A stretch of 64,000 bases of DNA from Omphiscola glabra (Eukaryota > Mollusca > Gastropoda > Lymnaeidae): assembly GCA_964017045.1 (NCBI GenBank), contig OZ024810.1, forward strand, positions 654,111 through 718,110. The letters are read 5' to 3'. Of this stretch, positions 2,574-54,965 are shown one piece after another (position 1 is the first letter of the stretch; the number at the start of each line of letters is the position of its first letter). Made by a program: the position numbers and the translations under genes. The notes beneath the pieces were generated by a model. It was not told the origin of the DNA, did not search any database, and saw nothing but the letters and a program-made list of their open reading frames with translations.

Positions 2574-2589
2574 TTTAAATTGTGTTTAT
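2574..2589 (+). repeat. 5' target-site duplication of the LINE
   Basis: TTTAAATTGTGTTTAT is repeated exactly at 5652-5667, on the far side of the LINE tail. Sixteen bp is a usual size for non-LTR retrotransposon target duplications. Confidence 0.8.
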
Positions 2590-5455
2590 TATACCACGCA
2601 TCGCCTCATTTAACGCTCAGTCGCTTGGCCCTTGTGAGAAACGTATCGCAGTCTCCGAATTTATCACAGATAGGCGAATTGACATTCTGTTTATCCAGGA
2701 GACCTGGTTTCGGCTGACTGGCGATGAAGGAAAATGTACCGATCTCGCTCCCCCTGGTTATTCTGCCAGATCATTTCCTCGTGCAACTCGTGGTGGTGGC
2801 CTTGCTGTCATCTATAATGACACGTTGTCCCGTTATCTCGCCTTTGTCACAGAGTTTTCGTTTGCTCACACATCGTTTGAAGCGGTTCAACTTACCTTGT
2901 CGATGCCCCAGCAGATCGTTCATTTTATATGCATTTATCGCATCTGCCCTAGCAGGAAAAATAAACTTACTGATGCTGTGTTTCATCGGGAGTTCCCGGA
3001 TCTGCTGGATCATTGCAACACATTGGCTGGCACTTATATTGTAGTAGGGGATATGAACATTCACTTCGACCAGCCACAGAATCCCTCCACTGCTAAATTG
3101 ATTGATCTTTTGGACTTATTTAGTCTTAAGCAATTAGTCGACCAACCGACTCATAATCGTGGACATATTATTGATTGGGTGCTGCATAGGCCTCATGATT
3201 TTGTAGTTACCTCTACTTCAGTCACTCAAGAGCTTTCCTCAGACCACTTCTGTGTTGTTTGTGAGCTTAACGTTAATGCATCCTCTCCTCTCCTTCAATC
3301 CAGGGAGGTCCGCAGTTTGTGTACTATAAAAAGGGATGCCTTTAAGCGTGATCTGAGTTTGGAAGTGTCCCCTGCCCTCTGCCCTACTTTGGAAACACTA
3401 CACAGTGCATTGCGCACTGTGCTTGAACGGCATGCCCCCCTAACCCGCCGTATTGTTAGGTCAGCACGGTCAGCTCCCTGGTATGCAACCATAAGGGAGG
3501 AACTACGCAGTGCCAAGAAAGAGCGGCGTAGCGCGGAAAAGAAGTGGCTTAGGTCAGGTCTTGTTGTTTTTAGGCAGATGTATTATGCTGCCAAGAAACG
3601 TGTGACCAAAATTGTTTGTCGAGCAAAAACTTTGTATTTTAGCCAAAAGATAATTATGGGTAAAACCTGCAAGCAGTTGTTCGATGTTTGTAGCAATCTC
3701 AGAGGGATTAACAAAGGAATTGCTCTTCCTTCAGTGTATCCGTTGCCCCAGCAACCAGAGATGTTCTGCAATTTCTTTACAAGCAAAGTTGCTGACATCC
3801 GCGCTGAGCTTGATTGTCTTGACATACCCCCCTTAGAATTGCCACCCTTTTCTTGTGTTAGTTCACATTTCGAAATTTTTAAGCCGGTTTCAGAACAGGA
3901 GGTCAAAATTACTATTCTGGAGTCTAAGCCTACGTCATGTTCTTTGGACCCCATCCCCACCCCCCTGTTGGTTGAGTCGTTAGATCATTTGCTCCCAACG
4001 ATAACCAACATAGTCAATGAAAGCTTGTCATCGGGCACTGTTCCATCTATTTGTAAGTCAGCTGTCATCAAACCATTGCTTAAGAAGCCTGGTCTGGATG
4101 AAAATAATTTTAAAAACTATAGACCTGTATCTCACTTATCATTTTTGTCTAAGGTCATTGAAAAACTAGTTCTAAAACAACTTTTTGCTTACTTAAATGA
4201 CAACTCTCTTCTCAGTCCTAATCAATCAGCCTATAGACCTTTCCATAGCACTGAGACGGCTCTCTTGAAAGTCACCAATGACCTCTTGCTTGCATTGGAC
4301 AGTGGTGATGTCTCCCTCCTGATCCTCTTGGACCTCAGTGCGGCCTTTGACACTGTCGACCATGAAACCCTTTACAAAACGCTTGAAAATTACTTTGGCA
4401 TTTCTGGTTCTGCTTTGTCTTGGTTTAGGTCGTTCCTCTCTGATAGAACGCAGGCAGTCGCTGTCGATGGCTGTATCTCCAGCAGTGCTGACTTGGTGTA
4501 TAGAGTGCCACAGGGGTCCGTTTTGGGCCCGGTTCTATTTACAATGTATACCAGGCCACTGCTCCTCTTGCTCGAGAGGCATGCTGTTGGGAGCCAGTCT
4601 TTCGCGGATGATACGCAACTATACAAGCATACCCATCCCTCTCTTGTAGATTCAGCTGTCCGGACTTTGCAGGAGTGTATTGGTGATGTCAAGTCATGGA
4701 TGATACTCAGCAAGTTGAAACTTAACGATGACAAAACGGAAGCACTTCTTATTCATGATCACAAATCATCCTCTAACTCAGCTCTCCCCACCTCATTTCA
4801 AGTAGGTAACTCAGACATACAGTTTACATACTCAACTAGGAATCTTGGTTATATTCTGTCTAACAACATGTCTCTAGATAAACATATATCTCACATTTGT
4901 CGCTCTGCATACACTGCTATCCGTCAGATCAGCTCCATCCGCCACTACCTCACAGTTAGTGCAACAAAAACCTTAGTCTGTGCTCTTGTTCTCTCTCGTC
5001 TTGACTACTGCAACTCTCTTCTGTCAGGCTCACCAAAACACTTCTTAGAAAGATTACAAAAGGTTCAAAACTCAGCTGCTAGGCTAGTTTTAAAGGCAAA
5101 AAAACGTGATCACGTCACACCACTACTTCATTCACTTCATTGGCTCCCTGTACAAGCACGGATTGATTATAAACTCTCTGTTCTGTGCCACCACTTTTTC
5201 TCGAATTCCTGCCCTTCATATCTAACCGAAATTCTCTCTGTCTATTCACCCCTTCGACAGCTTCGCTCCTCCGCAGACGATCGTATTCTTTCTGTCCCTA
5301 AGACTCGCACAAAAACATACGGTGAAAGATCTTTCTCTTACTGTGCCCCCAAACAATGGAATTCTCTTCCACTACACATCAGAAATATATCAACCATCAC
5401 AGCCTTCAAAACTGCACTCAAAACACACCTCTTTAAACTTTACTATCCTGACTGA
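2582..5455 (+). CDS. LINE ORF2: AP-type endonuclease and reverse transcriptase, 5' end missing
   Basis: This is a 957-codon open frame with no internal stop. Its apparent first codon, GTG at 2582, lies inside the target duplication, so the first three residues come from flanking DNA. The first in-frame Met is residue 108, too late to include the whole endonuclease. Residues about 8-230 form an endonuclease/exonuclease/phosphatase fold: SFNAQS (9-14), QETW (39-42), GDMN (156-159), an aspartate at 198, and SSDH (219-222). Residues about 490-760 form the reverse transcriptase: motif A LDLSAAFD (583-590), motif B PQGSVLGPVLF (643-653) and catalytic FADD (674-677). The C-terminal segment with WNSLPLHIR is common in CR1/L2 proteins. 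By family knowledge the protein nicks the target and primes cDNA synthesis on its own RNA. All catalytic landmarks appear present, but translation from this copy is doubtful without a start. Confidence 0.9.
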   Translation: MFIIPRIASFNAQSLGPCEKRIAVSEFITDRRIDILFIQETWFRLTGDEGKCTDLAPPGYSARSFPRATRGGGLAVIYNDTLSRYLAFVTEFSFAHTSFEAVQLTLSMPQQIVHFICIYRICPSRKNKLTDAVFHREFPDLLDHCNTLAGTYIVVGDMNIHFDQPQNPSTAKLIDLLDLFSLKQLVDQPTHNRGHIIDWVLHRPHDFVVTSTSVTQELSSDHFCVVCELNVNASSPLLQSREVRSLCTIKRDAFKRDLSLEVSPALCPTLETLHSALRTVLERHAPLTRRIVRSARSAPWYATIREELRSAKKERRSAEKKWLRSGLVVFRQMYYAAKKRVTKIVCRAKTLYFSQKIIMGKTCKQLFDVCSNLRGINKGIALPSVYPLPQQPEMFCNFFTSKVADIRAELDCLDIPPLELPPFSCVSSHFEIFKPVSEQEVKITILESKPTSCSLDPIPTPLLVESLDHLLPTITNIVNESLSSGTVPSICKSAVIKPLLKKPGLDENNFKNYRPVSHLSFLSKVIEKLVLKQLFAYLNDNSLLSPNQSAYRPFHSTETALLKVTNDLLLALDSGDVSLLILLDLSAAFDTVDHETLYKTLENYFGISGSALSWFRSFLSDRTQAVAVDGCISSSADLVYRVPQGSVLGPVLFTMYTRPLLLLLERHAVGSQSFADDTQLYKHTHPSLVDSAVRTLQECIGDVKSWMILSKLKLNDDKTEALLIHDHKSSSNSALPTSFQVGNSDIQFTYSTRNLGYILSNNMSLDKHISHICRSAYTAIRQISSIRHYLTVSATKTLVCALVLSRLDYCNSLLSGSPKHFLERLQKVQNSAARLVLKAKKRDHVTPLLHSLHWLPVQARIDYKLSVLCHHFFSNSCPSYLTEILSVYSPLRQLRSSADDRILSVPKTRTKTYGERSFSYCAPKQWNSLPLHIRNISTITAFKTALKTHLFKLYYPD

Positions 5456-12209: not shown

Positions 12210-15200
12210 TCCGACATCCTAACTCAAACAATATGATGTATTACTATATGACATTTGGTATCTACTGACATCCTAACTCAAACAATATGATGTATTACTA
12301 TATGACATTTGGTATCTACTGACATCCTAACTCAAACAATATGATGTATTACTATATGACATTTGGTATCTACTGACATCCTAACTCAAACAATATGATG
12401 TATTACTATATGACATTTGGTATCTACTGACATCCTAACTCAAACAATATGATGTATTACTATATGACATTTGGTATCTACTGACATCCTAACTCAAACA
12501 ATATGATGTATTACTATATGACATTTGGTATCTACTGACATCCTAACTCAAACAATATGATGTATTACTATATGACATTTGGTATCTACTGACATCCTAA
12601 CTCAAACAATATGATGTATTACTATATGACATTTGGTATCTACTGACATCCTAACTCAAACAATATGATGTATTACTATATGACATTTGGTATCTACTGA
12701 CATCCTAACTCAAACAATATGATGTATTACTATATGACATTTGGTATCTACTGACATCCTAACTCAAACAATATGATGTATTACTATATGACATTTGGTA
12801 TCTACTGACATCCTAACTCAAACAATATGATGTATTACTATATGACATTTGGTATCTACTGACATCCTAACTCAAACAATATGATGTATTACTATATGAC
12901 ATTTGGTATCTACTGACATCCTAACTCAAACAATATGATGTATTACTATATGACATTTGGTATCTACTGACATACTAACTCAAACAATATGATGTATTAC
13001 TATATGACATTTGGTATCTACTGACATCCTAACTCAAACAATATGATGTATTACTATATGACATTTGGTATCTACTGACATCCTAACTCAAACAATATGA
13101 TGTATTGCTATATGACATTTGGTATCTACTGACATCCTAACTCAAACAATATGATGTATTGCTATATGACATTTGGTATCTACTGACATCCTAACTCAAA
13201 CAATATGATGTATTGCTATATGACATTTGGTATCTACTGACATCCTAACTCAAACAATATGATGTATTGCTATATGACATTTGGTATCTACTGACATCCT
13301 AACTCAAACAATATGATGTATTGCTATATGACATTTGGTATCTACTGACATCCTAACTCAAACAATATGATGTATTGCTATATGACATTTGGTATCTACT
13401 GACATCCTAACTCAAACAATATGATGTATTGCTATATGACATTTGGTATCTACTGACATCCTAACTCAAACAATATGATGTATTACTATATGACATTTGG
13501 TATCTACTGACATCCTAACTCAAACAATATGATGTATTACTATATGACATTTGGTATCTACTGACATCCTAACTCAAACAATATGATGTATTACTATATG
13601 ACATTTGTCATCTACTGACATCCTAACTCAAACAATATGATGTATTACTATATGACATTTGGTATCTACTGACATCCTAACTCAAACAATATGATGTATT
13701 ACTATATGACATTTGGTATCTACTGACATCCTAACTCAAACAATATGATGTATTAATATATGACATTTGGTATCTACTGAAATCCTAACTCAAACAATAT
13801 AATGTATTACTATATGACATTTGGTATCTACTGACATCCTAACTCAAACAATATGATGTATTACTATATGACATTTGGTATCTACTGACATCCAAACTCA
13901 AACAATATGATGTATTACTATATGACATTTGGTATCTACTGACATCCTAACTCAAACAATATGATGTATTACTATATGACATTTGGTATCTACTGACATC
14001 CTAACTCAAACAATATGATGTATTACTATATGACATTTGGTATCTACTGACATCCTAACTCAAACAATATGATGTATTACTATATGACATTTGGTATCTA
14101 CTGACATCCTAACTCAAACAATATGATGTATTACTATATGACATTTGGTATCTACTGACATCCTAACTCAAACAATATGATGTATTAATATATGACATTT
14201 GGTATCTACTGACATCCTAACTCAAACAATATGATGTATTACTATATGACATTTGGTATCTACTGACATCCTAACTCAAACAATATGATGTATTACTATA
14301 TGACATTTGGTATCTACTGACATCCTAACTCAAACAATATGATGTATTAGTATATGACATTTGGTATCTACTGACATCCTAACTCAAACAATATGATGTA
14401 TTACTATATGACATTTGGTATCTACTGACATCCTAACTCAAACAATATGATGTATTACTATATGACATTTGGTATCTACTGACATCCTAACTCAAACAAT
14501 ATGATGTATTACTATATGACATTTGGTATCTACTGACATCCTAACTCAAACAATATGATGTATTACTATATGACATTTGGTATCTACTGACATCCTAACT
14601 CAAACAATATGATGTATTACTATATGACATTTGGTATCTACTGACATCCTAACTCAAACAATATGATGTATTACTATATGACATTTGGTATCTACTGACA
14701 TCCTAACTCAAACAATATGATGTATTACTATATGACATTTGGTATCTACTGACATCCTAACTCAAACAATATGATGTATTACTATATGACATTTGGTATC
14801 TTCTGACATCCTAACTCAAACAATATGATGTATTACTATATGACATTTGGTATCTACTGACATCCTAACTCAAACAATATGATGTATTACTATATGACAT
14901 TTGGTATCTACTGACATCCTAACTCAAACAATATGATGTATTACTATATGACATTTGGTATCTACTGACATCCTAACTCAAACAATATGATGTATTACTA
15001 TATGACATTTGGTATCTACTGACATCCTAACTCAAACAATATGATGTATTACTATATGACATTTGGTATCTACTGACATCCTAACTCAAACAATATGATG
15101 TATTACTATATGTCATTTGGTATCTACTGACATCCTAACTCAAACAATATGATGTATTACTATATGACATTTGGTATCTACTGACATCCTAACTCAAACA

Positions 15201-17630
15201 ATATGATGTATTACTATATGATATTTGGTATCTACTGACATCCTAACTCAAACAATATGATGTATTACTATATGACATTTGTTATCTACTGACATCCTAA
15301 CTCAAACAATATGATGTATTGATATATGACATTTGGTATCTACTGACATCCTAACTCAAACAATATGATGTATTGATATATGACATTTGGTATCTACTGA
15401 CATCCTAACTCAAACAATATGATGTATTGCTATATGACATTTGGTATCTACTGACATCCTAACTCAAACAATATGATGTATTGCTATATGACATTTGGTA
15501 TCTACTGACATCCTAACTCAAACAATATGATGTATTGCTATATGACATTTGGTATCTACTGACATCCTAACTCAAACAATATGATATATTGCTATATGAC
15601 ATTTGGTATCTACTGACATCCTAACTCAAACAATATGATGTATTGCTATATGACATTTGGTATCTACTGACATCATAACTCAAACAATATGATGTATTAC
15701 TATATGACATTTGGTATCTACTGACATCCTAACTCAAACAATATGATGTATTGCTATATGACATTTGGTATCTACTGACATCCTAACTCAAACAATATGA
15801 TGTATTACTATATGACATTTGGTATCTACTGACATCCTAACTCAAACAATATGATGTATTACTATATGACATTTGGTATCTACTGACATCCTAACTCAAA
15901 CAATATGATGTATTACTATATGACATTTGTTATCTACTGACATCCTAACTCAAACAATATGATGTATTACTATATGACATTTGGTATCTACTGACATCCT
16001 AACTCAAACAATATGATGTATTACTATATGACATTTGGTATCTACTGACATCCTAACTCAAACAATATGATGTATTACTATATGACATTTGGTATCTACT
16101 GACATCCTAACTCAAACATTATGATGTATTACTATATGACATTTGGTATCTACTGACATCCTAACTCAAACAATATGATGTATTACTATATGACATTTGG
16201 TATCTACTGACATCCTAACTCAAACAATATGATGTATTACTATATGACATTTGGTATCTACTGACATCCTAACTCAAACAATATGATGTATTAATATATG
16301 ACATTTGGTATCTACTGACATCCTAACTCAAACAATATGATGTATTACTATATGACATTTGGTATCTACTGACATCCTAACTCAAACAATATGATGTATT
16401 ACTATATGACATTTGGTATCTACTGACATCCTAACTCAAACAATATGATGTATTACTATATGACATTTGGTATCTACTGACATCCTAACTCAAACAATAT
16501 GATGTATTACTATATGACATTTGGTATCTACTGACATCCTAACTCAAACATTATGATGTATTACTATATGACATTTGGTATCAACTGACATCCTAACTTA
16601 AACAATATGATGTATTACTATATGACATTTGGTATCTACTGACATCCTAACTCAAACAATATGATGTATTACTATATGACATTTGGTATCTACTGACATC
16701 CTAACTCAAACAATATGATGTATTACTATATGACATTTGGTATCTACTGACATCCTAACTCAAACAATATGATGTATTACTATATGACATTTGGTATCTA
16801 CTGACATCCTAACTCAAACAATTTGATGTATTACTATATGACATTTGGTATCTACTGACATCCTAACTCAAACAATTTGATGTATTACTATATGACATTT
16901 GGTATCTACTGACATCCTAACTCAAACAATATGATGTATTACTATATGACATTTGGTATCTACTGACATCCTAACTCAAACAATATGATGTATTACTATA
17001 TGACATTTGGTATCTACTGACATCCTAACTCAAACAATATGATGTATTACTATATGACATTTAGTATCTACTGACATCCTAACTCCCACAATTTGCTTGT
17101 ATTACTATATGACATTTGGTATCTACTGACATCCTAACTCAAACAATATGATGTATTACTATATGACATTTGGTATCTACTGACATCCTAACTCAAACAA
17201 TATGATGTATTACTATATGACATTTGGTATCTACTGACATCCTAACTCCCACACTTTGCTTGTATTACTATATGCCATTTGGTATCTACTGACATCCTAA
17301 CTCAAACAATATGCTTGTATTACTATATGACATTTGGTATCTACTGACATCCTAACTCCCACACTTTGCTTGTATTACTATATGACATTTGGTATCTACT
17401 GACATCCTAACTCCCACACTTTGCTTGTATTACTATATGACATTTGATATCTACTGACATCCTAACTCAAACAATATGCTTGTATTACTATATGACATTT
17501 GGTATCTACTGACATCTTAACTCAAACAATTTGCTTGTATTACTATATGACATTTGGTATCTACTGGCATCCTAACTCAAACAATATGCTTGTATTACTA
17601 TATGACATTTAGTATCTACTGAGACCCTAA
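12210..17630. repeat. Satellite, 54 bp unit, about 100 copies
   Basis: The unit contains ACTGACATCCTAACTCAAAC, AATATGATGTATTACTATAT and GACATTTGGTATCT in series. Spacing is exactly 54 bp for long stretches with very few substitutions. Local subfamilies occur: TATTGCTATATG in seven successive units from about 13105, and again from about 15427. From about 17090 units diverge, with CCCACACTTTGCTTGTATT replacing part of the core. No frame is open, so the array is non-coding. Confidence 0.98.
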
Positions 17631-17735
17631 CTTCGAACATTCTGTTGTATATCTTCTGTTTCAAGTCGTTAATCCCACTGAGATCCTAACTTCGAACATT
17701 TTGTTGTATATCTTCTGTTTCAATTCGTTAATCGA
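17617..17735. repeat. Two 59-bp units at the decayed edge of the 54-bp satellite
   Basis: Two copies share CTAACTTCGAACATT and TGTTGTATATCTTCTGTTTC. Their first bases, ACTGAGATCCTAACT, resemble the satellite's ACTGACATCCTAACT, suggesting a diverged relative. Confidence 0.8.
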
Positions 17736-23355: not shown

Positions 23356-23564
23356 TGACTGTTTGGGTGCCCTCCTATAATGAAATCATCAGTCTCGCCA
23401 GTGTGGACCTCGAGTGTCACCACGTCACACCTCTATTAGGGATATTGCTAGGGGAAGTAACCCACCAAAAAGTTGGTATTAGTTAAGTGGTTCTCAATCT
23501 GTTTCGTCTCTGTTTGAGAGTTATAACAAAACATGCCAATAAATTTATTTGTATTTAACCATCC

Positions 23565-28640: not shown

Positions 28641-28725
28641 AAGCCATGGCCAATCAAATTTTAACATCTATCGGAAATTTACGGACGTTTAGCAACCTTG
28701 CTGAGGATCTAAGATATATCTATAT

Positions 28726-28801
28726 CAGTGGTTCTTAAACGTCCGATTGCCGCGACCCTTTAATACAGTTCCTCATGTTGTGGCGACCCTTAACCACAAA
28801 A

Positions 28802-28804
<3 letters not shown>
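28726..28804 (+). mobile_element. SPIN-like hAT transposon end, fragment
   Basis: The segment opens with CAGTGGTTCT and continues with TGCCGCGACCCTTTAATACA and GTTCCTCATGTTGTGG, then CGACCCTTAACCACAAAATTA. From memory this order and wording match the 5' end of SPIN and related non-autonomous hAT elements, which were reported in several tetrapods, a triatomine bug and the pond snail Lymnaea. Only one end is present: the sequence runs straight into an (ATCT)n microsatellite where the AT-rich interior would follow. No coding capacity remains. Confidence 0.6.
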
Positions 28805-29245
<441 letters not shown>

Positions 29246-31009: not shown

Positions 31010-34000
31010 AACTACTCCACCTACTCTCGTCCACCTACTCTCTTCCACCTACTCTCGTCCACCTACTCTTTTTCCACCTACTCTCTTCCACCTACTCTTG
31101 TCCACCTACTCTCTTCCACCTACTCTTGTCCACCTACTCTCTTCCACCTACTCTCTTCCACCTACTCTCTTCCACCTACTCTCCTCTACCTACTTTCTTC
31201 TACCTACTCTTGTCCACCTACTCTCTTCCACCTCCTACTCTCTTCCACCTACTCTTGGCCACCTATTCTCTTCCACCTACTCTGGGCCACCTACTCTCTT
31301 CCACCTACTTTTGTCCACCTACTCTCTTCCACCTACTCTTGGCCACCTACTCTCTTACACCTACTCTCTTCCACCTACTCTCGTCACCTACTCTCTTCCA
31401 CCTACTCTTGGCCACCTACTCTCGTCCACCTACTCTCTTCCATCTACTCTTGTCCACCTACTCCCTTCCACATACACTTGGCCACCTACTCTGTTCCACC
31501 TACTCTCGTCCACCTACTCTCTTCCACCTACTCTAGGCCACCTACTCTCTTCCACCTACTCTTGTCCACCTACTCTCTTCCACCTACTCTTGTCCACCTA
31601 CTCTCTTCCACCTATTCTTGGCCACCTACTCTCTTCCACCTACTCTTGTCCACCTACTATCTTCCACCTACTCTCGTCCACCTACTCTATTCCACCTACT
31701 CTATTCCACCTACTCTAGGCCACCTACTCTTGTCCGCCTACTCTCTTCCACCTACTCTAGGCCACCTATTCTCTTCCACCTACTTTTGTCCACCTACTCT
31801 CTTCCACCTACTCTTGGTCACCTACTCTCTTCTACCTACTCTTGGCCACCTACTCTCGTCCACTTACTCTCGTCCACCTACTCTCTTCCACCTACTCTAT
31901 TCCACCTACTCTTGGCCACCTACTCTTGGCCGCCTATTCTCTTCCAACTACTCTCTTCCACCTACTCACTTCCACCTACTCACTTCCACCTACTCTCTTC
32001 CACCTACTCTTGGTCACATACTCTTGGCCACCTACTCTCTTCCACCTACTCTCTTCCACCTACTCTCGTACACCTACTCTCTTCCACCTACTCTCTTCCA
32101 CCTACTCTTGTCCACCTACTCTCTTCCACCTACTATTGGCGACCTATTATCTTCTACCTACTCTCGGCTACCTACTCTCGTCCACCTACTCTTTTCCACC
32201 TACTCTCTTCAACCTACTCTTGGCCACCTACTCTAGGCCACCTACTCTCTTCCACCTACTCTCTTCCACCTACTCTTGGTCACATACTCTCTTCCACCTA
32301 CTCTTGGCCACCTACTCTCTTCCACCTACTCTTGTCCTTCTACTCTATTCCACCTACTCTTGTCCACCTACTCTCTTCCACCTACTCTTGTCCACCTACT
32401 CTCTTCCACCTACTCTTGTCCACCTACTCTCTTCCACCTACTCTCTTCCACCTACTCTCTTTCACCTACTCTTGTCCACCTACTCTCTTCCACCTACTCT
32501 TGCCCACCTACTCTCTTCCACCTACTCTTGGCCACCTACTCTCTTCCACCTACTCTCGTTCACCTACTCTTGGCCACCTAATCTCTTCCAACTACTCTCT
32601 TCCACCTACTCTCTTCCACCTACTCTCTTCCACCTACTCTCTTCCACCTACTCTCTTCCACCTACTCTTGGTCACATACTCTCTTCCACCTACTCTTGGC
32701 CACCTACTCTCTTCCACCTACTCTCGTCCACCTACTCTCTTCCACCTACTCTTGTCCTTCTACTCTCTTCCACCTACTCTTGTCCACCTACTCTCTTCCA
32801 CCTACTCTTGTCCACCTACTCTCTTCCACCTACTCTTGTCCACCTACTCTCTTCCACCTACTCTCTTCCACCTACTCTCTTCCACCTACTCTCTTTCACC
32901 TACTCTTGTCCACCTACTCTCTTCCACCTACTCTTGCCCACCTACTCTCTTCCACCTACTCTTGGCCACCTACTCTCTTCCACCTACTCTTGTCCACCTA
33001 TTCTCTTCCACCTACTATTGGCCACCTACTCTATTCCACCTACTCTCGTCAACCTACTCTCGTCCACCTACTCTTGTCCACCTACTCTCTTCCACCTACT
33101 CTAGGCCACCTATTCTCTTCCACCTACTTTTGTCCACCTACTCTCTTCCACCTACTCTCTTCCAATTACTCTTGGCCACCTACTCTCTTCCACATACTCT
33201 CGTCCACCTACTCTCGTCCACCTACTCTCTTCCACCTACTCTAGGCCACCTACTCTCTTCCACATACTTTTGTCCACCTACTTTTGTCCACCTACTCTCT
33301 TCCACCTACTCTCTTCCACCTAATCTTGGCCACCTACTCTCTTCCAACTACTCTTAGCCACCTACTCTCGTTCACCTACTCTCTTCCACCTACTCTTGGC
33401 CACCTACTCTCGTCCACCTACTCTCTTACACCTACTCTCGTCCACCTACTCTCTTCCACCTACTCTCGTCCACCCACTCTTTTTCCACCTACTCTCGTCC
33501 ATCTACTCTTGTCCACATACTCTCGTCCACTTACTCTCTTCCACCTTCTCTTGTCCACCTACTCTCGTCCACCTACTCTCTTCCACCTACTCTCGCCCAC
33601 CTACTCTTTCTCCACCTACTCTCTTCCACCTACTCTTGTCCACCTACTCTCTTCCACCTACTCTTGTCCACCTACTCTCTTCCACCTACTCTCTTCCACC
33701 TACTCTCTTCCACCTACTCTCCTCCACCTACTTTCTTCTACCTACTCTTGTCCACCTACTCTCTTCCACCTCCTACTCTCTTCCACCTACTCTTGGCCAC
33801 CTATTCTCTTCCACCTACTCTGGGCCACCTACTCTCTTCCACCTACTTTTGTCCACCTACTCTCTTCCACCTACTCTTGGCCACCTACTCTCTTACACCT
33901 ACTCTCTTCCACCTACTCTCGTCACCTACTCTCTTCCACCTACTCTTGGCCACCTACTCTCGTCCACCTACTCTCTTCCTTCTACTCTTGTCCACCTACT

Positions 34001-34438
34001 CCCTTCCACATACACTTGGCCACCTACTCTGTTCCACCTACTCTCGTCCACCTACTCTCTTCCACCTACTCTAGGCCACCTACTCTCTTCCACCTACTCT
34101 TGTCCACCTACTCTCTTCCACCTACTCTTGGCCACCTACTCTCTTCTACCTACTCTTGTCCACCTACTCTCTTCCACCTATTCTTGGCAACCTACTCTCT
34201 TCCACCTACTCTTGTCCACCTACTATCTTCCACCTACTCTAGTCCACCTACTCTATTCCACCTACTCTATTCCACCTACTCTAGGCCACCTACTCTTGTC
34301 CGCCTACTCTCTTCCACCTACTCTAGGCCACCTATTCTCTTCCACCTACTTTTGTCCACCTACTCTCTTCCACCTACTCTTGGTCACCTACTCTCTTCTA
34401 CCTACTCTTGGCCACCTACTCTCGTCCACTTACTCTCG

Positions 34439-37400
34439 TCCACCTACTCTCTTCCACCTACTCTTGGCCACCTACTCTTGGCCACCTACTCTTGGCCACC
34501 TACTCTTGGCCACCTACTCTTGGCCGCCTATTCTCTTCCAACTACTCTCTTCCACCTACTCACTTCCACCTACTCTCTTCAACCTACTCTATTCCACCTA
34601 CTCTTGGTCACATACTCTCTTGGCCACCTACTCTTGGCCACCTACTCTCTTCCACCTACTCTCGTACACCTACTCTCTTCCACCTACTCTCTTCCACCTA
34701 CTCTCTTCCACCTACTCTTGTCCACCTACTCTCTTCCACCTACTATTGGCGACCTATTATCTTCTACCTACTCTCGGCTACCTACTCTCGTCCACCTACT
34801 CTTTTCCACCTTCTCTCTTCCACCTACTCTTGGCCACCTACTCTAGGCCACCTACTCTCTTCCACCTACTCTCTTCCACCTACTCTCTTCCACCTACTCT
34901 TGGTCACATACTCTCTTCCACCTACTCTTGGCCACCTACTCTCTTCCACCTACTCTTGTCCACCTACTCTCTTCCACCTACTCTTGTCCTTCTACTCTCT
35001 TCCACCTACTCTTGTCCACCTACTCTCTTCCACCTACTCTTGTCCACCTACTCTCTTCCACCTACTCTTGTCCACCTACTCTCTTCCACCTACTCTCTTC
35101 CACCTACTCTCTTTCACCTACTCTTGTCCACCTACTCTCTTCCACCTACTCTTGCCCACCTACTCTCTTCCACCTACTCTTGGCCACCTACTCTCTTCCA
35201 CCTACTCTCGTCCACCTGCTCTCTACCAATTACTCTAGGTCATCTACTCTCTTCCACCTACTCTTGTCCACCTATTCTCTTCCACCTACTCTTGGCTACC
35301 TACTCCCTTCCACATACACTTGGCCACCTACTCTCTTCCACCTACTCTTGTCCACCTACTCTCTTCCACCTACTCTAGGCCACCTATTCTCTTCCACCTA
35401 CTTTCTTCCACCTACTCTAGGCCACCTACTCTCTTCCACCTACTCTCTTCCACCTACTCTCTTCCACCTACTCTCTTCCACCTACTCTCTTCCACCTACT
35501 CTCTTCCACCTACTCTTGGCCACCTACTCTCTTCCAACTACTCTTGGCCACCTATTCTCTTCCACCTACTCTTGTCCACCTACTCTTGTCCACCTACTCT
35601 CTTCCACCTACTCTTGTCGACCTACTCTCTTCCAATTACTCTTGGCCACCTACTCTCTTCCACCTACTCTCGTCCACCTACTCTCGTCCACCTACTCTCT
35701 TCCACCTACTCTAGGCCACCTAATCTCTTCCACATACTTTTGTCCACCTACTTTTGTCCACCTACTCTCTTCCACCTACTCTCTTCCACCTAATCTTGGC
35801 CACCTACTCTCTTCCAACTACTCTTAGCCACCTACTCTCGTTCACCTACTCTCTTCCACCTACTCTTGGCCACCTACTCTCGTCCACCTACTCTTGTCCA
35901 CCCACTCTTTTTCCACCTACTCTCGTCCATCTACTCTTGTCCACCTACTCTCGTCCACTTACTCTCTTCCACCTACTCTTGTCCACCTACTCTCTTCCAC
36001 CTATTCTCTTCCACCTACTCTCTTCCACCTACTTTCTTCTACCTACTCACTTCCACCTTACTCTTCCACCTACTCTCGTCCACCTACTCTCGTCCATCTA
36101 CTCTTCTCCACCTACTCTTGTCCACCTACTCTTAGCTACCTACTCTCGTTCACCTACTCTTGGCCACCTACTCTCTTCCAACTACTCTCTTCCACCTACT
36201 CTCTTCCACCTACTCTCTTCCACCTACTCTCTTCCACCTACTCTCTTCCACCTACTCTTGGTCACATACTCTCTTCCACCTACTCTTGGCCACCTACTCT
36301 CTTCCACCTACTCTCGTCCACCTACTCTCTTCCACCTACTCTTGTCCTTCTACTCTCTTCCACCTACTCTTGTCCACCTACTCTCTTCCACCTACTCTTG
36401 TCCACCTACTCTCTTCCACCTACTCTTGTCCACCTACTCTCTTCCACCTACTCTCTTCCACCTACTCTCTTTCACCTACTCTTGTCCACCTACTCTCTTC
36501 CACCTACTCTTGCCCACCTACTCTCTTCCACCTACTCTTGGCCACCTACTCTCTTCCACCTACTCTCGTCCACCTACTCTCTACCAATTACTCTAGGCCA
36601 TCTACTCTCTTCCACCTACTCTTGTCCACCTATTCTCTTCCACCTAATATTGGCCACCTACTCTATTCCACCTACTCTCGTCAACCTACTCTTGTCCACC
36701 TACTCTTGTCCACCTACTCTCTTCCACCTACTCTAGGCCACCTATTCTCTTCCACCTACTTTTGTCCACCTACTCTCTTCCACCTACTCTCTTCCAATTA
36801 CTCTAGGCCACCTATTCTCTTCCACCTACTCTCGTCCACCTACTCTCTTCCACCTACTCTCTTCCAATTACTCTCGTCCATCTACTCTTCTCCACCTACT
36901 CTTGTCCACCTACTCTTAGCTACCTACTCTCGTTCACCTACTCTTGGCCACCTACTCTCTTCCAACTACTCTCTTCCACCTACTCTCTTCCACCTACTCT
37001 CTTCCACCTACTCTCTTCCACCTACTCTCTTCCACCTACTCTTGGTCACATACTCTCTTCCACCTACTCTTGGCCACCTACTCTCTTCCACCTACTCTCG
37101 TCCACCTACTCTCTTCCACCTACTCTTGTCCTTCTACTCTCTTCCACCTACTCTTGTCCACCTACTCTCTTCCACCTACTCTTGTCCACCTACTCTCTTC
37201 CACCTACTCTTGTCCACCTACTCTCTTCCACCTACTCTCTTCCACCTACTCTCTTTCACCTACTCTTGTCCACCTACTCTCTTCCACCTACTCTTGCCCA
37301 CCTACTCTCTTCCACCTACTCTTGGCCACCTACTCTCTTCCACCTACTCTCGTCCACTTACTCTCTACCAATTACTCTAGGTCATCTACTCTCTTCCACC

Positions 37401-39466
37401 TACTCTTGTCCACCTATTCTCTTCCACCTAATATTGGCCACCTACTCTATTCCACCTACTCTCGTCAACCTACTCTTGTCCACCTACTCTTGTCCACCTA
37501 CTCTCTTCCACCTACTCTAGGCCACCTATTCTCTTCCACCTACTTTTGTCCACCTACTCTCTTCCACCTACTCTCTTCCAATTACTCTTGGCCACCTACT
37601 CTCTTCCACCTACTCTCGTCCACCTACTCTCGTCCACCTACTCTCTTCCACCTACTCTAGGCCACCTACTCTCTTCCACATACTTTTGTCCACCTACTTT
37701 TGTCCACCTACTCTCTTCCACCTACTCTCTTCCACCTAATCTTGGCCACCTACTCTCTTCCAACTACTCTTAGCCACCTACTCTCGTTCACCTACTCTCG
37801 TTCACCTACTCTCTTCCACCTACTCTTGGTCACCTACTCTCGTCCACCTACTCTCTTACACCTACTCTCGTCCACCTACTCTCTTCCACCTACTCTCGTC
37901 CACCCACTCTTTTTCCACCTACTCTCGTCCATCTACTCTTGTCCACATACTCTCGTCCACTTACTCTCTTCCACCTACTCTTGTCCACCTACTCTCTTCC
38001 ACCTATTCTCTTCCACCTACTCTCTTCCACCTACTTTCTTCTACCTACTCACTTCCACCTTACTCTTCCACCTACTCTCGTCCACCTACTCTCGTCCATC
38101 TACTCTTCTCCACCTACTCTTGTCCACCTACTCTTAGCTACCTACTCTCGTTCACCTACTCTTGGCCACCTACTCTCTTCCAACTACTCTCTTCCAACTA
38201 CTCTCTTCCAACTACTCTCTTCCACCTACTCTCTTCCACCTACTCTTGGTCACCTACTCTTGGCTACCCAGTCTTGGCCACCTAATCTCTTCCACCTACT
38301 CTCGTCCACCTACTCTTGTCCACCTACTCTCTTCCACTTACTCTATTCCACCTACTCTTGGCCACCTACTCTCTTCCACCTACTCTCTTCCACCTACTCT
38401 TGGTCACCTACTCTCTTCCACCTACTCTTGGCCACCTACTCTCTTCAACCTAATCTTGTCCACCTACTCTCTTCCACCTACTCTTGGCCACATAATCTCG
38501 TTCACCTACTCTCTTCCACCTAATCTCTTCCACCTAATCTTTTCCACCTACTCTCTTCCACCTACTCTCGTCCACCTACTCTTGGCCACCTACTCTCTTC
38601 CACCTACTCTTGTCCACCTACTCTCTTCCACCTACTCTTGGTCACCTACTCTCTTCTACCTACTCTTGTCCACCTATATTCTTCCACCAACTCTTGGCCA
38701 CCTACTCTCTTCCACCTACTCTTGGCCACCTACTCTCTTCCACCTACTCTCGTCCACCTACTCTTGTCCACCTACTCTTGTCCACCTACTCTTGTCCACC
38801 TACTCTCTTCCACCTACTCTTGGCCACCTACTCTTGGCCACCTACTCTTGGCCACCTACTCTCTTCTACCTACTCTTGGCCACCTACTCTCGTCCACCTA
38901 CTCTCTTCCACCTACTCTTGGCCACCTGCTCTTGGCCACCTACTCTTGGCCACCTACTCTTGGCCACCTACTCTTGGCCACCTACTCTTGGCCACCTACT
39001 CTTGGCCACCTACTCTTGGCCACCTACTCTTGGCCTCCTACTCTTGGCCACCTACTCTCTTCTACCTACTCTTGGCCACCTACTCTTGTCCACCTACTCT
39101 CTTCCACCTACTCTTGGCCACCTACTCTCGTCCACCTACTCTCTTCCACCTACTCTTGTCCACCTACTCCCTTCCACCTACTCTTGGCCACCTACTCTCT
39201 TCCACCTACTCTAGGCCACCTACTCTAGGCCACCTACTCTAGGCCACCTAATCTCTTCCACCTACTGTTGTCCACCTACTCTCTACCACCTACTCTTGTC
39301 CACCTACTCTCTTCCACCTACTCTTGGTCACCTACTCTCTTTTACCTACTCTTGTCCACCTACTTTCTTCTACCAACTCTTGGCCACCTACTCTTGGCCA
39401 CCTACTCTCTTCCACCTACTCTCGTCCACCTACTCTCGTCCACCTACTCTTGTCCACCTACTCTCT
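34439..39466. repeat. Higher-order block A, 5,028 bp
   Basis: The order of 14-bp variants in this block recurs in the next block at a constant offset of 5,028 bp. For example, GCCGCCTATTCTCTTCCAAC occurs at 34523 and 39551. It also contains an internal 784-bp (56-unit) partial duplication, with matching text near 36160 and 36944. Confidence 0.9.
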
Positions 39467-42400
39467 TCCACCTACTCTCTTCCACCTACTCTTGGCCACC
39501 TACTCTTGGCCACCTACTCTTGGCCACCTACTCTTGGCCACCTACTCTTGGCCGCCTATTCTCTTCCAACTACTCTCTTCCACCTACTCACTTCCACCTA
39601 CTCTCTTCAACCTACTCTATTCCACCTACTCTTGGTCACATACTCTCTTGGCCACCTACTCTTGGCCACCTACTCTCTTCCACCTACTCTCGTACACCTA
39701 CTCTCTTCCACCTACTCTCTTCCACCTACTCTCTTCCACCTACTCTTGTCCACCTACTCTCTTCCACCTACTATTGGCGACCTATTATCTTCTACCTACT
39801 CTCGGCTACCTACTCTCGTCCACCTACTCTTTTCCACCTTCTCTCTTCCACCTACTCTTGGCCACCTACTCTAGGCCACCTACTCTCTTCCACCTACTCT
39901 CTTCCACCTACTCTCTTCCACCTACTCTTGGTCACATACTCTCTTCCACCTACTCTTGGCCACCTACTCTCTTCCACCTACTCTTGTCCACCTACTCTCT
40001 TCCACCTACTCTTGTCCTTCTACTCTCTTCCACCTACTCTTGTCCACCTACTCTCTTCCACCTACTCTTGTCCACCTACTCTCTTCCACCTACTCTTGTC
40101 CACCTACTCTCTTCCACCTACTCTCTTCCACCTACTCTCTTTCACCTACTCTTGTCCACCTACTCTCTTCCACCTACTCTTGCCCACCTACTCTCTTCCA
40201 CCTACTCTTGGCCACCTACTCTCTTCCACCTACTCTCGTCCACCTGCTCTCTACCAATTACTCTAGGTCATCTACTCTCTTCCACCTACTCTTGTCCACC
40301 TATTCTCTTCCACCTACTCTTGGCTACCTACTCCCTTCCACATACACTTGGCCACCTACTCTCTTCCACCTACTCTTGTCCACCTACTCTCTTCCACCTA
40401 CTCTAGGCCACCTATTCTCTTCCACCTACTTTCTTCCACCTACTCTAGGCCACCTACTCTCTTCCACCTACTCTCTTCCACCTACTCTCTTCCACCTACT
40501 CTCTTCCACCTACTCTCTTCCACCTACTCTCTTCCACCTACTCTCTTCCACCTACTCTTGGCCACCTACTCTCTTCCAACTACTCTTGGCCACCTATTCT
40601 CTTCCACCTACTCTTGTCCACCTACTCTTGTCCACCTACTCTCTTCCACCTACTCTTGTCGACCTACTCTCTTCCAATTACTCTTGGCCACCTACTCTCT
40701 TCCACCTACTCTCGTCCACCTACTCTCGTCCACCTACTCTCTTCCACCTACTCTAGGCCACCTAATCTCTTCCACATACTTTTGTCCACCTACTTTTGTC
40801 CACCTACTCTCTTCCACCTACTCTCTTCCACCTAATCTTGGCCACCTACTCTCTTCCAACTACTCTTAGCCACCTACTCTCGTTCACCTACTCTCTTCCA
40901 CCTACTCTTGGCCACCTACTCTCGTCCACCTACTCTTGTCCACCCACTCTTTTTCCACCTACTCTCGTCCATCTACTCTTGTCCACCTACTCTCGTCCAC
41001 TTACTCTCTTCCACCTACTCTTGTCCACCTACTCTCTTCCACCTATTCTCTTCCACCTACTCTCTTCCACCTACTTTCTTCTACCTACTCACTTCCACCT
41101 TACTCTTCCACCTACTCTCGTCCACCTACTCTCGTCCATCTACTCTTCTCCACCTACTCTTGTCCACCTACTCTTAGCTACCTACTCTCGTTCACCTACT
41201 CTTGGCCACCTACTCTCTTCCAACTACTCTCTTCCACCTACTCTCTTCCACCTACTCTCTTCCACCTACTCTCTTCCACCTACTCTTGGTCACATACTCT
41301 CTTCCACCTACTCTTGGCCACCTACTCTCTTCCACCTACTCTCGTCCACCTACTCTCTTCCACCTACTCTTGTCCTTCTACTCTCTTCCACCTACTCTTG
41401 TCCACCTACTCTCTTCCACCTACTCTTGTCCACCTACTCTCTTCCACCTACTCTTGTCCACCTACTCTCTTCCACCTACTCTCTTCCACCTACTCTCTTT
41501 CACCTACTCTTGTCCACCTACTCTCTTCCACCTACTCTTGCCCACCTACTCTCTTCCACCTACTCTTGGCCACCTACTCTCTTCCACCTACTCTCGTCCA
41601 CCTACTCTCTACCAATTACTCTAGGCCATCTACTCTCTTCCACCTACTCTTGTCCACCTATTCTCTTCCACCTAATATTGGCCACCTACTCTATTCCACC
41701 TACTCTCGTCAACCTACTCTTGTCCACCTACTCTTGTCCACCTACTCTCTTCCACCTACTCTAGGCCACCTATTCTCTTCCACCTACTTTTGTCCACCTA
41801 CTCTCTTCCACCTACTCTCTTCCAATTACTCTAGGCCACCTATTCTCTTCCACCTACTCTCGTCCACCTACTCTCTTCCACCTACTCTCTTCCAATTACT
41901 CTCGTCCATCTACTCTTCTCCACCTACTCTTGTCCACCTACTCTTAGCTACCTACTCTCGTTCACCTACTCTTGGCCACCTACTCTCTTCCAACTACTCT
42001 CTTCCACCTACTCTCTTCCACCTACTCTCTTCCACCTACTCTCTTCCACCTACTCTCTTCCACCTACTCTTGGTCACATACTCTCTTCCACCTACTCTTG
42101 GCCACCTACTCTCTTCCACCTACTCTCGTCCACCTACTCTCTTCCACCTACTCTTGTCCTTCTACTCTCTTCCACCTACTCTTGTCCACCTACTCTCTTC
42201 CACCTACTCTTGTCCACCTACTCTCTTCCACCTACTCTTGTCCACCTACTCTCTTCCACCTACTCTCTTCCACCTACTCTCTTTCACCTACTCTTGTCCA
42301 CCTACTCTCTTCCACCTACTCTTGCCCACCTACTCTCTTCCACCTACTCTTGGCCACCTACTCTCTTCCACCTACTCTCGTCCACTTACTCTCTACCAAT

Positions 42401-44494
42401 TACTCTAGGTCATCTACTCTCTTCCACCTACTCTTGTCCACCTATTCTCTTCCACCTAATATTGGCCACCTACTCTATTCCACCTACTCTCGTCAACCTA
42501 CTCTTGTCCACCTACTCTTGTCCACCTACTCTCTTCCACCTACTCTAGGCCACCTATTCTCTTCCACCTACTTTTGTCCACCTACTCTCTTCCACCTACT
42601 CTCTTCCAATTACTCTTGGCCACCTACTCTCTTCCACCTACTCTCGTCCACCTACTCTCGTCCACCTACTCTCTTCCACCTACTCTAGGCCACCTACTCT
42701 CTTCCACATACTTTTGTCCACCTACTTTTGTCCACCTACTCTCTTCCACCTACTCTCTTCCACCTAATCTTGGCCACCTACTCTCTTCCAACTACTCTTA
42801 GCCACCTACTCTCGTTCACCTACTCTCGTTCACCTACTCTCTTCCACCTACTCTTGGTCACCTACTCTCGTCCACCTACTCTCTTACACCTACTCTCGTC
42901 CACCTACTCTCTTCCACCTACTCTCGTCCACCCACTCTTTTTCCACCTACTCTCGTCCATCTACTCTTGTCCACATACTCTCGTCCACTTACTCTCTTCC
43001 ACCTACTCTTGTCCACCTACTCTCTTCCACCTATTCTCTTCCACCTACTCTCTTCCACCTACTTTCTTCTACCTACTCACTTCCACCTTACTCTTCCACC
43101 TACTCTCGTCCACCTACTCTCGTCCATCTACTCTTCTCCACCTACTCTTGTCCACCTACTCTTAGCTACCTACTCTCGTTCACCTACTCTTGGCCACCTA
43201 CTCTCTTCCAACTACTCTCTTCCAACTACTCTCTTCCAACTACTCTCTTCCACCTACTCTCTTCCACCTACTCTTGGTCACCTACTCTTGGCTACCCAGT
43301 CTTGGCCACCTAATCTCTTCCACCTACTCTCGTCCACCTACTCTTGTCCACCTACTCTCTTCCACTTACTCTATTCCACCTACTCTTGGCCACCTACTCT
43401 CTTCCACCTACTCTCTTCCACCTACTCTTGGTCACCTACTCTCTTCCACCTACTCTTGGCCACCTACTCTCTTCAACCTAATCTTGTCCACCTACTCTCT
43501 TCCACCTACTCTTGGCCACATAATCTCGTTCACCTACTCTCTTCCACCTAATCTCTTCCACCTAATCTTTTCCACCTACTCTCTTCCACCTACTCTCGTC
43601 CACCTACTCTTGGCCACCTACTCTCTTCCACCTACTCTTGTCCACCTACTCTCTTCCACCTACTCTTGGTCACCTACTCTCTTCTACCTACTCTTGTCCA
43701 CCTATATTCTTCCACCAACTCTTGGCCACCTACTCTCTTCCACCTACTCTTGGCCACCTACTCTCTTCCACCTACTCTCGTCCACCTACTCTTGTCCACC
43801 TACTCTTGTCCACCTACTCTTGTCCACCTACTCTCTTCCACCTACTCTTGGCCACCTACTCTTGGCCACCTACTCTTGGCCACCTACTCTCTTCTACCTA
43901 CTCTTGGCCACCTACTCTCGTCCACCTACTCTCTTCCACCTACTCTTGGCCACCTGCTCTTGGCCACCTACTCTTGGCCACCTACTCTTGGCCACCTACT
44001 CTTGGCCACCTACTCTTGGCCACCTACTCTTGGCCACCTACTCTTGGCCACCTACTCTTGGCCTCCTACTCTTGGCCACCTACTCTCTTCTACCTACTCT
44101 TGGCCACCTACTCTTGTCCACCTACTCTCTTCCACCTACTCTTGGCCACCTACTCTCGTCCACCTACTCTCTTCCACCTACTCTTGTCCACCTACTCCCT
44201 TCCACCTACTCTTGGCCACCTACTCTCTTCCACCTACTCTAGGCCACCTACTCTAGGCCACCTACTCTAGGCCACCTAATCTCTTCCACCTACTGTTGTC
44301 CACCTACTCTCTACCACCTACTCTTGTCCACCTACTCTCTTCCACCTACTCTTGGTCACCTACTCTCTTTTACCTACTCTTGTCCACCTACTTTCTTCTA
44401 CCAACTCTTGGCCACCTACTCTTGGCCACCTACTCTCTTCCACCTACTCTCGTCCACCTACTCTCGTCCACCTACTCTTGTCCACCTACTCTCT
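39467..44494. repeat. Higher-order block B, about 5,028 bp
   Basis: Adjacent direct copy of block A. The offset shifts to 5,042 between about 40540 and 41240 because a run of CTCTTCC units has one extra copy (7 against 6), then returns to 5,028 where another run has one fewer (4 against 5). Similarity stops near 44494. Confidence 0.9.
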
Positions 44495-44764
44495 TCCACC
44501 TACTCTTGTCCACCTACTCTCTTCCACCTACTCTTGGCCACCTACTCTCTTCTACCTACTCTTGGCCACCTACTCTCTTCCACCTACTCTTGGCCACCTA
44601 CTCTTGACCACCTACTCTTGGCCACCTACTCTTGGCCACCTACTCTTGGCCACCTACTCTCTTCCACCTACTCTCTTCCACCTACTCTTGGCCACCTACT
44701 CTCTTCCACCTACTCTTGGCCACCTACTCTCTTCCACCTACTCTTGGCCACCTATGCTTTCAGA

Positions 44765-51319: not shown

Positions 51320-52320
51320 GCAGTTGAAAATGTTACATGACATTGAAAGAGTTACATGTCATCGAATGTGTTACATGGCATCGAATGAGTTACATGGCAT
51401 CGAATGTGTTACATGACATCGAATGTGTTACAAGACATCGAATGAGTTACATGACATCGAATGTGTTACATGACATCGAGTGAGTTACATGACATCGAAT
51501 GTGTTACATGGCATCGAATGTGTTACATGATATTGAAAGTGTTACATGACATTGAAAATGTTACATGCCGTTGAAAGAGTTACATGGCATCCAATGTGTT
51601 ACATGACATCGAATGTGTTACATGACATCGAATGTGTTACATGACATCGAATGTCTTACATGACATCGAAAGTGTTACATGACATCCAATGTGTTACATG
51701 ACATCGAATGTGTTACATGACATCGAATTGTGACATGACATCGAATGTCTTACATGACATCGAATGTGTTACATAACATCGAATGTGTGACATGACCTCG
51801 AATGTGTTGAATGGCATCGAATGTGTTACATGACATCGAATGTGTTACATGACATTGAACATGTTACATGACATTGAAAGAGTTACATGGCATCCAATGT
51901 GTTACATGACATCGAATGAGTTACATGACATCGAATGTGTTACATGGCATCAGATGTGTTACATGATATTGAAAGTGTTACATGACATTGAACATGTTAC
52001 ATGACATTGAAAGAGTTACATGGCATCCAATGTGTTACATGACATCGAATGTGCTACATGACATCGAATGTGTTACATGACATCGAATGTCTTACATGAC
52101 ATCGAATGTGTTACATGACATCCAATGTGTTACATGACATCGAATGTGTTACATGACATCGAATGTGTTGAATGGCATCGAATGTGTTACATGACATCGA
52201 ATGTGTTACATGATATTGAACATGTTACATGACATTGAAAATGTTACATGACATTGAAAGAGTTACATGGCATCCAATGTGTTACATGACATCGAATGTG
52301 TTACATGACATCGAATGTGT
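51320..52320. repeat. Satellite, 19 bp unit, left part
   Basis: GTTACATGACATCGAATGT is the unit. A recurrent run of variants (GATATTGAAA, GACATTGAAC, GACATTGAAAGA, GGCATCCAATG) appears several times in the same order, indicating a higher-order pattern. Confidence 0.95.
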
Positions 52321-53765: not shown

Positions 53766-54965
53766 TACATGACATCGAATGTGTGACATAACATCGAATG
53801 TGTTGAATGGCATCGAATGTGTTACATGACATCGAATGTGTTACATGACATCGAATGTGTTACATGACATCGAATGTGTTACATGATATTGAAAATGTTA
53901 CATGCCGTTGAAAGAGTTACATGGCATCCAATGTGTTACATGACATCGAATGTGTTACATGACATCGAATGTGTTACATGATATTGAAAATGTTACATGA
54001 CATTGAAAGAGTTACATGGCATCCAATGTGTTACATGACATCGAATGTGTTACATGACATCGAATGTGTTACATGACATCCAAATGTTTTACATGACATC
54101 GAATGTGTTACATGACATCGAATGAGTTACATGACATCGAATGTGTTACATGGCATCGAATGTGTTACATGATATTGAAAGTGTTACATGACATTGAAAA
54201 TGTTACATGACATTGAAATATTTACATGGCATCCAATGTGTTACATGACATTGAATGTGTTACATGACATCGAATGTGTGACATGACATCGAATGTGTTG
54301 AATGGCATCGAATGTGTATATGACATCGAATGTGTTACATGATATTGAAAGTGTTACATGACATTGAAAGAGTTACATGTCATTGAAAGAGTTACATGGC
54401 ATCCAATGTGTTACATGGCATCGAATGTGTTACATGACATCGAATGTGTGACATGACATCGAATGTGTTAAATGACATCGAATGTGTTAAATGATATCGA
54501 ATACGTTACATGACATCGAATGAGTTACATGGCATCGAATGAGTTACATGACATCGAATGTGTTACATGACATCAAATTTGTTACATGATATTGAAAGTG
54601 TTACATAACATTGGAAATGTTACATGGCATTGAAAATGTTACATGGCATCCAATGTGCTACATTATATCGAATGTGTTACATGACATCGAATGTGTTACA
54701 TGACATCGAATGTGTTACATGACATCGAATGTGTTAAATGACATCGAATGTGTTACATGGCATCGAATGTGTTACATGGCATCGAATGTGTTACATGGCA
54801 TCGAATGTGGTACATAAAATTAAATGTGTTACATGACATTTAAAGTTTGACATGACATTGAAAGTGTTAAATGACATTGAAAGTTTTACATGACATTGAA
54901 AGTGTTACATGACATTGTAATTGTGACATGACATTGAACGTATTACATGGCATCGAATGTGTTAA
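53766..54965. repeat. Satellite, 19 bp unit, right part
   Basis: Same unit and higher-order variant runs as 51320-52320. Units become more divergent after about 54790 (TTTAAAG, TTGTAATTG). Confidence 0.95.

What the first reader, a model, noticed from the sequence alone, without database searches (positions are those of the whole stretch)
28726..28804. SPIN-like hAT transposon end in a probably invertebrate genome
Directly seen: CAGTGGTTCT, then TGCCGCGACCCTTTAATACA and GTTCCTCATGTTGTGG in order. From memory this matches the terminal region of SPIN-type hAT elements, known for transfer between tetrapods, a triatomine bug and a pond snail. If this host is a mollusc, the copy would be a further trace of cross-phylum transfer. 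It is cut short by a microsatellite.
Basis: partly seen in the sequence, partly recalled or inferred. Interest (0 to 1): 0.8.

Follow-up and report, generated by a model that had tools for sequence, protein, structure and literature searches.

The report
Snail copy of SPIN jumping gene
A 79-base piece of DNA in a pond-mud-snail chromosome is the broken left end of a SPIN jumping gene, a kind known for crossing between vertebrates and invertebrates; it is genuine, but SPIN-like elements were already known from related snails.

Summary
Window 28726-28804 matches positions 1-79 of a 197-bp repeat consensus from the same genome (73 of 79). The assembly fits that of Omphiscola glabra, a lymnaeid pond snail. 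The repeat is a non-autonomous hAT element: 35 of 40 copies keep both ends, and 31 of those 35 have 8-bp target duplications with 0-2 mismatches. SPIN membership rests on three tests: a non-coding interior of vertebrate SPIN, recalled, hits this genome at 91-95% in 40 of 40 scored matches; longer copies carry broken transposase genes 78-87% identical to snake, toad, bat and loris proteins, against 34-57% to six outlying relatives; on a tree the snail relic nests among tetrapod rows. Contamination and vertical descent do not fit. The window copy is dead, its right part missing where a TCTA/TCTG microsatellite begins. SPIN-like elements in pond snails are known (Biomphalaria; Lymnaea recalled), so this is a new host, not a new phenomenon. 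Extra: two SPIN subfamilies, one with 2.5-kb and longer elements; SPIN-like proteins in a land snail and a tunicate.

The parts
28718..28725 (+). ATCTATAT, the presumed left target-site duplication (fits nnnTAnnn); no partner found
   Evidence: sequence; 37 of 40 copies have TA at positions 4-5 of the left flank
28726..28804 (+). left end of a non-autonomous SPIN (hAT) element, positions 1-79 of the 197-bp consensus, short subfamily
   Evidence: 73 of 79 identical to the consensus; 8 of 8 sites that differ between short and long subfamily are short-like
28806..29243 (.). TCTA/TCTG microsatellite that stands where the remaining 118 bp of the element should be
   Evidence: Tandem Repeats Finder; only chance-level matches to the right end in the window

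Best explanation
The feature is a dead, truncated copy of a 197-bp SPIN miniature element in Omphiscola glabra. SPIN is a hAT DNA transposon. Its transposase, supplied in trans by a full-length copy, recognises the terminal and subterminal repeats, cuts the element out and pastes it into an 8-bp site of the form nnnTAnnn, which becomes duplicated. Miniature copies keep only the ends and ride on that transposase. Shown here: the ends, the duplications, the copy family, longer relatives with a broken transposase gene, and closeness of non-coding and coding parts to vertebrate SPIN. Inferred: the cut-and-paste chemistry (from the hAT superfamily), arrival of SPIN in the snail lineage by horizontal transfer (from or to a tetrapod, or via a shared third party), and loss of the right part of the window copy through deletion plus microsatellite growth. 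Lacking its right end, this copy should be unable to move.
For: Copy family, ends, length 197 bp and 8-bp TA-centred duplications. Recalled vertebrate SPIN interior of 123 nt (its first 24 nt also occur in the miniatures) hits this genome at 91-95%, 40 of 40 scored matches of 217 candidates, best E 3.6e-48. Short consensus equals the recalled vertebrate right end at 86 of 86 and the left end at 97 of 100 positions. Transposase relics: L098 N-terminal piece 91% over 90 aa to a viper protein, 36-44% to five of six non-SPIN ZBED5-like proteins that I picked out and 51% over 74 aa to the sixth; L116 covers residues 78-614 of that viper protein at 80-85%, in three frames. Tree: snail relic inside a 16-row clade of tetrapod rows plus one unnamed row, support 100/100. 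Host identity: span 744.77 Mb, scaffold lengths 86.24 and 28.79 Mb and the 13,783-bp mitochondrion match PMC12553978.
Against: No Repbase or Dfam entry could be consulted. The vertebrate non-coding reference, and the name SPIN for the tetrapod proteins (annotated ZBED5-like, ZBED8-like, FAM200-like and the like), are recalled. The window copy has one end only, so its own duplication cannot be checked. The 40 copies are those most like the window copy, so their divergence (mean K2P 0.068) is probably too low for the family. The tree uses 31 of the 120 listed relatives, chosen by me, was drawn with a midpoint root, and many of its inner forks are open, so neither donor nor direction is resolved.
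Confidence: 0.96

Rival explanations
1. An unrelated molluscan hAT family whose ends merely resemble SPIN.
For: The outermost bases (CAGTGGTTCTCAACC) are of a general hAT type (recalled); many resident hATs exist (150 scored of 1,849 candidates for the hAT dimerisation domain).
Against: Identity extends over the 197-bp consensus, over a mostly non-terminal interior of 123 nt, and over the transposase at 78-87%. In the rows listed for the SPIN core, 18 loci lie at 67% or more, one fragment at 60%, the other loci at 55% or less.
Confidence: 0.02
2. Vertebrate DNA contaminating the assembly.
For: None found.
Against: 40 scored copies lie on 16 contigs, with local target duplications (0-2 mismatches) in 31 of the 35 two-ended ones; the window is part of a 28.8-Mb scaffold; copies differ from each other.
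Confidence: 0.005
3. Vertical inheritance from the common ancestor of molluscs and vertebrates.
For: ZBED5-like hAT transposases are widespread in animals.
Against: Presumably neutral non-coding DNA is 91-95% identical to the recalled vertebrate sequence; the transposase nests among tetrapods, while a tunicate, a closer relative of tetrapods, lies outside that clade.
Confidence: 0.01
4. One SPIN arrival only, the two snail subfamilies (197-bp short; 2.5-kb and longer) having diverged inside snails.
For: Both share ends and subterminal sequence; the interior of the long consensus is 105 of 110 to the recalled vertebrate sequence, so it is not far from it.
Against: Within the ends the short consensus is 97-100% identical to the recalled vertebrate ends, the long ones 91-92%, which also fits two arrivals.
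Confidence: 0.5

Closest known systems
SPIN (SPACE INVADERS) hAT transposons and their non-autonomous SPIN_NA elements of tetrapods and Rhodnius prolixus
   Same: Terminal and subterminal sequence and non-coding interior (to a recalled reference), transposase (78-87% aa to tetrapod proteins), 8-bp TA-centred duplications
   Different: The snail miniature has its own internal deletion (197 bp); the snail transposase copies read here are broken; the window copy lacks the right end
SPIN-like hAT of Biomphalaria glabrata (PMC5440852, passage seen)
   Same: Hygrophilan snail host, hAT with significant identity to SPIN, about 1,000 copies, no intact transposase reported there
   Different: Different snail family (Planorbidae); sequences could not be compared here; in O. 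glabra a near-complete but broken transposase copy was read
SPIN of Lymnaea stagnalis (Gilbert et al. 2010, recalled; not held)
   Same: Same snail family, Lymnaeidae
   Different: Sequence not available for comparison here

Membership tests
SPIN (hAT) | Characteristic left end CAGTGGTTCTCAACC...GTTCCTCATGTTGTGG | tested here: met
   window 73 of 79 to the genome consensus; consensus 97 of 100 to the recalled vertebrate left end
SPIN (hAT) | Characteristic right end ...GGTTGAGAACCGCTG | tested here: met
   met for the family (35 of 40 copies; 86 of 86 to recalled); not found for the window copy, which is truncated
SPIN (hAT) | 8-bp target-site duplication, nnnTAnnn (pattern recalled for this branch of hAT) | tested here: met
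   of 35 two-ended copies 16 perfect, 9 with one and 6 with two mismatches, 4 with four or more; TA in 37 of 40 left flanks. The window copy's own pair is not testable
SPIN (hAT) | Shared non-coding interior with vertebrate SPIN_NA | tested here: met
   40 of 40 scored matches (217 candidates) at 91-95%; the query was recalled, not from a database
SPIN (hAT) | SPIN-type transposase in longer copies of the same genome | tested here: met
   L116 80-85% to P0020 over residues 78-614, broken in three frames; 18 loci at 67% or more for the core among the listed rows, longest open frame 355 aa among them
SPIN (hAT) | Match to the curated Dfam/Repbase SPIN or URR1 entry | not testable with these tools
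   no such library on hand
Horizontal transfer | Discordance between element tree and host tree | tested here: met
   snail relic inside the 16-row clade of tetrapod rows (one unnamed row) at 100/100, tunicate outside

The most novel reading that the evidence does not exclude
SPIN came to pond snails in more than one wave, or stayed active there: a miniature wave whose consensus is near-identical to vertebrate SPIN, and a second subfamily of 2.5-kb and longer elements, some copies of which are 98% alike and so young, carrying transposase remnants. Freshwater pulmonate snails would then be a long-lived reservoir, and possibly a donor, in the SPIN network rather than a one-off recipient; the land snail Bradybaena and the tunicate Clavelina would be further invertebrate hosts.
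Probability: 0.3. Interest if true: 0.6.

Novelty: new member of a known kind. Interest (0 to 1): 0.4.

Why it matters
SPIN is a textbook case of DNA moving between animal phyla (recalled), and host-parasite contact involving snails and bugs has been proposed as a link. A chromosome-scale lymnaeid genome with two SPIN subfamilies, target duplications and near-complete transposase relics lets the number, order and age of arrivals be tested directly, including whether snails received or passed on the element.

Tried and rejected
Exact-pattern scans of viral contigs and genome contigs for the conserved SPIN core found nothing, so no independent non-coding reference came from them. Full-text searches for pieces of the SPIN sequence in papers found none. 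Rfam: no match in the window at the gathering scores. tRNA: none. Pfam gave no match for two transposase relics of L098 and the PDB one chance-level match. The idea that a transposase might lie between SPIN ends was tested on 42 stretches at 40 distinct hAT-domain places (30 with 1.5-kb flanks, 12 of 6.5 kb): two (L046, L058) hold a whole miniature SPIN as a neighbour insertion, the others no SPIN match. A possible second hAT pair of ends at 23486 and 24851 was looked at and left as probable chance. A genome-wide search for copies cut by the same microsatellite did not complete, so whether this truncation recurs is untested; none of the 27 other copies printed is cut by it, the 12 further ones I saw only as end scores. 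Rejected readings: unrelated hAT, contamination, vertical descent (see rivals).

Full report
What is there. The 79-mer matches a consensus built from copies in the genome at 73 of 79 positions. Chance gives at most 45 of 79 in 40 dinucleotide-model sequences of 64 kb, and 37-38 elsewhere in the window.

Which host. The window lies at C18:654111-718110 of a 744,774,263-base assembly in 37 contigs. Contig C37, 13,783 bp, is a mitochondrial genome (cox1 by Pfam; nad2 directly upstream of cox1 by my reading of the frames), an order I recall as typical of heterobranch snails. A paper search returned the Omphiscola glabra genome note (PMC12553978; abstract, Background section and passages seen): 744.78 Mb in 36 scaffolds, longest 86.24 Mb, a 28.79-Mb chromosome 17, 13.78-kb mitochondrion. 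C1 is 86,241,988 bp and C18 is 28,790,762 bp, which fits. The species is a lymnaeid, as is Lymnaea stagnalis; Biomphalaria is a planorbid of the same superfamily.

The family in this genome. The 131-base query gave 40 scored matches (the window included) among 963 candidates, 87-93% identical apart from itself, on 16 contigs. All 40 were fetched and measured. Thirty-five keep both ends; the commonest length is 197 bp. Of these 35, 16 have perfect 8-bp duplications, 9 one mismatch, 6 two, and 4 four or more. TA stands at positions 4-5 of the left flank in 37 of 40. Thirty-three copies of 150-230 bp were used for the consensus; two longer two-ended copies (363 and 395 bp) and the five others were left out. 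Mean K2P distance to the consensus is 0.068, range 0.041-0.134; as the copies were picked for likeness to the window, that is probably an underestimate. The 8 bp before the window copy, ATCTATAT, fit the same target type.

Is it SPIN. No curated repeat library was available, so I tested a recalled vertebrate SPIN_NA sequence. Of its 123-nt interior the first 24 nt also occur in the miniatures seen before; the other 99 I had not seen in any call. It hit this genome in 40 of 40 scored matches (217 candidates) at 91-95%. A wrong recollection would hardly give that. The short consensus agrees with the recalled ends at 97 of 100 (left) and 86 of 86 (right) positions.

Longer elements. Twelve of those 40 matches were read at their left ends, two of them in full. 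L098 and L099, on different chromosomes, are 2.5-kb elements with both SPIN ends, 50 differences in 2,523 aligned bases (98.0%) plus five gaps. L098 has a perfect duplication CCCTAGCA; L099 has CTGAAGAA and CTCAAGAA, without the TA. On the reverse strand they keep the first and last parts of a transposase with the middle missing. The N-terminal piece of L098 is 91% identical over 90 aa to a Protobothrops (viper) protein; the other tetrapod proteins among its best 22 hits are at 78-86%, one gecko protein at 73%; the tunicate protein P0060 is at 67%, and six non-SPIN ZBED5-like proteins that I picked out are at 36-51%. Sixteen long matches were probed at the predicted right end. SPIN sequence was found there in 9 of 16 and none in 7. 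In 7 of the 9 the right-hand part lies 2.4-2.6 kb from the left end, its pieces 87-100% identical to L098; two (L103, L110) are longer, by my estimate about 3.3 and 3.8 kb, and 79-83% identical in the part probed. Where both flanks could be read, 4 of 5 of these copies have perfect duplications and one has a single mismatch. The longer two were read further: L116 (the L110 element) holds transposase residues 78-614 of the viper protein at 80-85% identity, split over three frames, so it is broken, and the stretch read ends there; L117 (the L103 element) shows only the first 168 residues, at 76%. A search with the L116 core scored 150 of 1,074 candidates; in the rows listed I count 18 loci at 67% identity or more, with a longest open frame of 355 aa, one fragment at 60%, and other hATs at 55% or less. 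No intact SPIN transposase was seen, but only the best candidates are scored and listed.

Outside relatives. A 103-aa N-terminal piece found 17 proteins, among them three of the land snail Bradybaena similaris (86, 78, 75%), several of bats, and one filed under the fish parasite Thelohanellus (59%). The recalled 600-aa transposase found 1,987 proteins among 7,979 scored, the best 120 listed: named tetrapod rows with at least 95% coverage (snakes, toads and frogs, geckos, anoles, bats, a loris, rodents) at 83-96%, and the tunicate Clavelina at 81%. They are annotated as ZBED5-, ZBED8-, FAM200- or SCAN-domain-like; that they are SPIN transposases is recalled. In a tree of 31 of these proteins, chosen by me, plus two pieces of L116, the snail relic falls in a 16-row clade (support 100/100) with vipers, rat snake, bat, loris, gecko, anole, toads and frogs, rodents and one unnamed row; Rana, Rhinophrynus, two unnamed sequences and the tunicate group lie outside. 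The root is a midpoint and many inner forks are open, so the nearest relative and the direction are unresolved.

Two subfamilies. In the first 100 bp the long consensus is 92 of 100 to the recalled vertebrate sequence and the short one 97 of 100; over its first 213 bp the long consensus is 200 of 213. At the right end L098, one copy, is 78 of 86 and the short consensus 86 of 86. At the 8 sites that distinguish short from long within the 79 bp the window copy is short-like at all 8. The twelve long left ends are 87-99% to their own consensus, again a best-scoring sample. So some long copies are younger than the miniatures sampled, not all.

How it works. From the hAT superfamily: a transposase made by a full-length element recognises both ends, excises and reinserts at an 8-bp site. 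The anatomy (ends, duplications, miniatures without a gene, longer elements with a transposase relic) is shown; the chemistry is inferred. The window copy has no right end and so should be immobile; how the microsatellite came to stand in place of its other half is inferred to be deletion plus slippage growth, not tested.

What is known. PMC5440852 (passages seen) reports a hAT of about 1,000 copies in B. glabrata with significant identity to SPIN and no intact transposases. PMC11614815 and PMC6542046 (passages seen) describe SPIN shared by Rhodnius and vertebrates; PMC4054807 (passages) reports 385 SPIN elements in a turtle. That L. stagnalis holds SPIN is recalled; the 2008, 2010 and 2012 primary papers are not held. 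In the held library no paper listed holds Omphiscola, Bradybaena or Clavelina together with the phrases SPIN transposon(s) or SPIN elements (of 5 papers with two of the six terms, two pair Bradybaena with Omphiscola and three hold SPIN phrases only), broader, listed 8 of 6,777 and none of the 8 mentions Omphiscola. This covers open-licence papers only. Verdict: a genuine new host species in a known host group; interesting chiefly for the longer elements found on the way.

Noticed in passing
window 2579-5455 (+): Open 958-aa frame with endonuclease and reverse transcriptase domains: a possibly intact non-LTR retrotransposon.
   Followed up: partly
window 31016-44754: 13.7-kb array of about 980 copies of a 14-bp unit with very strong strand skew (GC skew near -0.8).
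   Followed up: no
window 12213-17632: 5.4-kb array of a 54-bp unit, 98% matches, about 100 copies; the window as a whole has 101 tandem-repeat rows.
   Followed up: no
window 51331-52321 and 53766-54964: The same 19-bp minisatellite lies on both sides of a reverse-transcriptase fragment (52595-53713), as if the retroelement had inserted into the array.
   Followed up: no
L074, L075, L076: Three nearly identical copies (by eye) of a 716-aa open hAT transposase frame on two chromosomes, without SPIN ends nearby: perhaps a recently active hAT.
   Followed up: partly
P0060, P0003, P0005, P0006: SPIN-grade transposase-like proteins in the tunicate Clavelina lepadiformis (81% to the recalled SPIN protein) and the land snail Bradybaena similaris (75-86% to the L098 piece).
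   Followed up: partly
window 23486 and 24851: Two short hAT-end-like words in inverted orientation 1.4 kb apart, around tandem repeats; possibly a decayed element or chance.
   Followed up: partly
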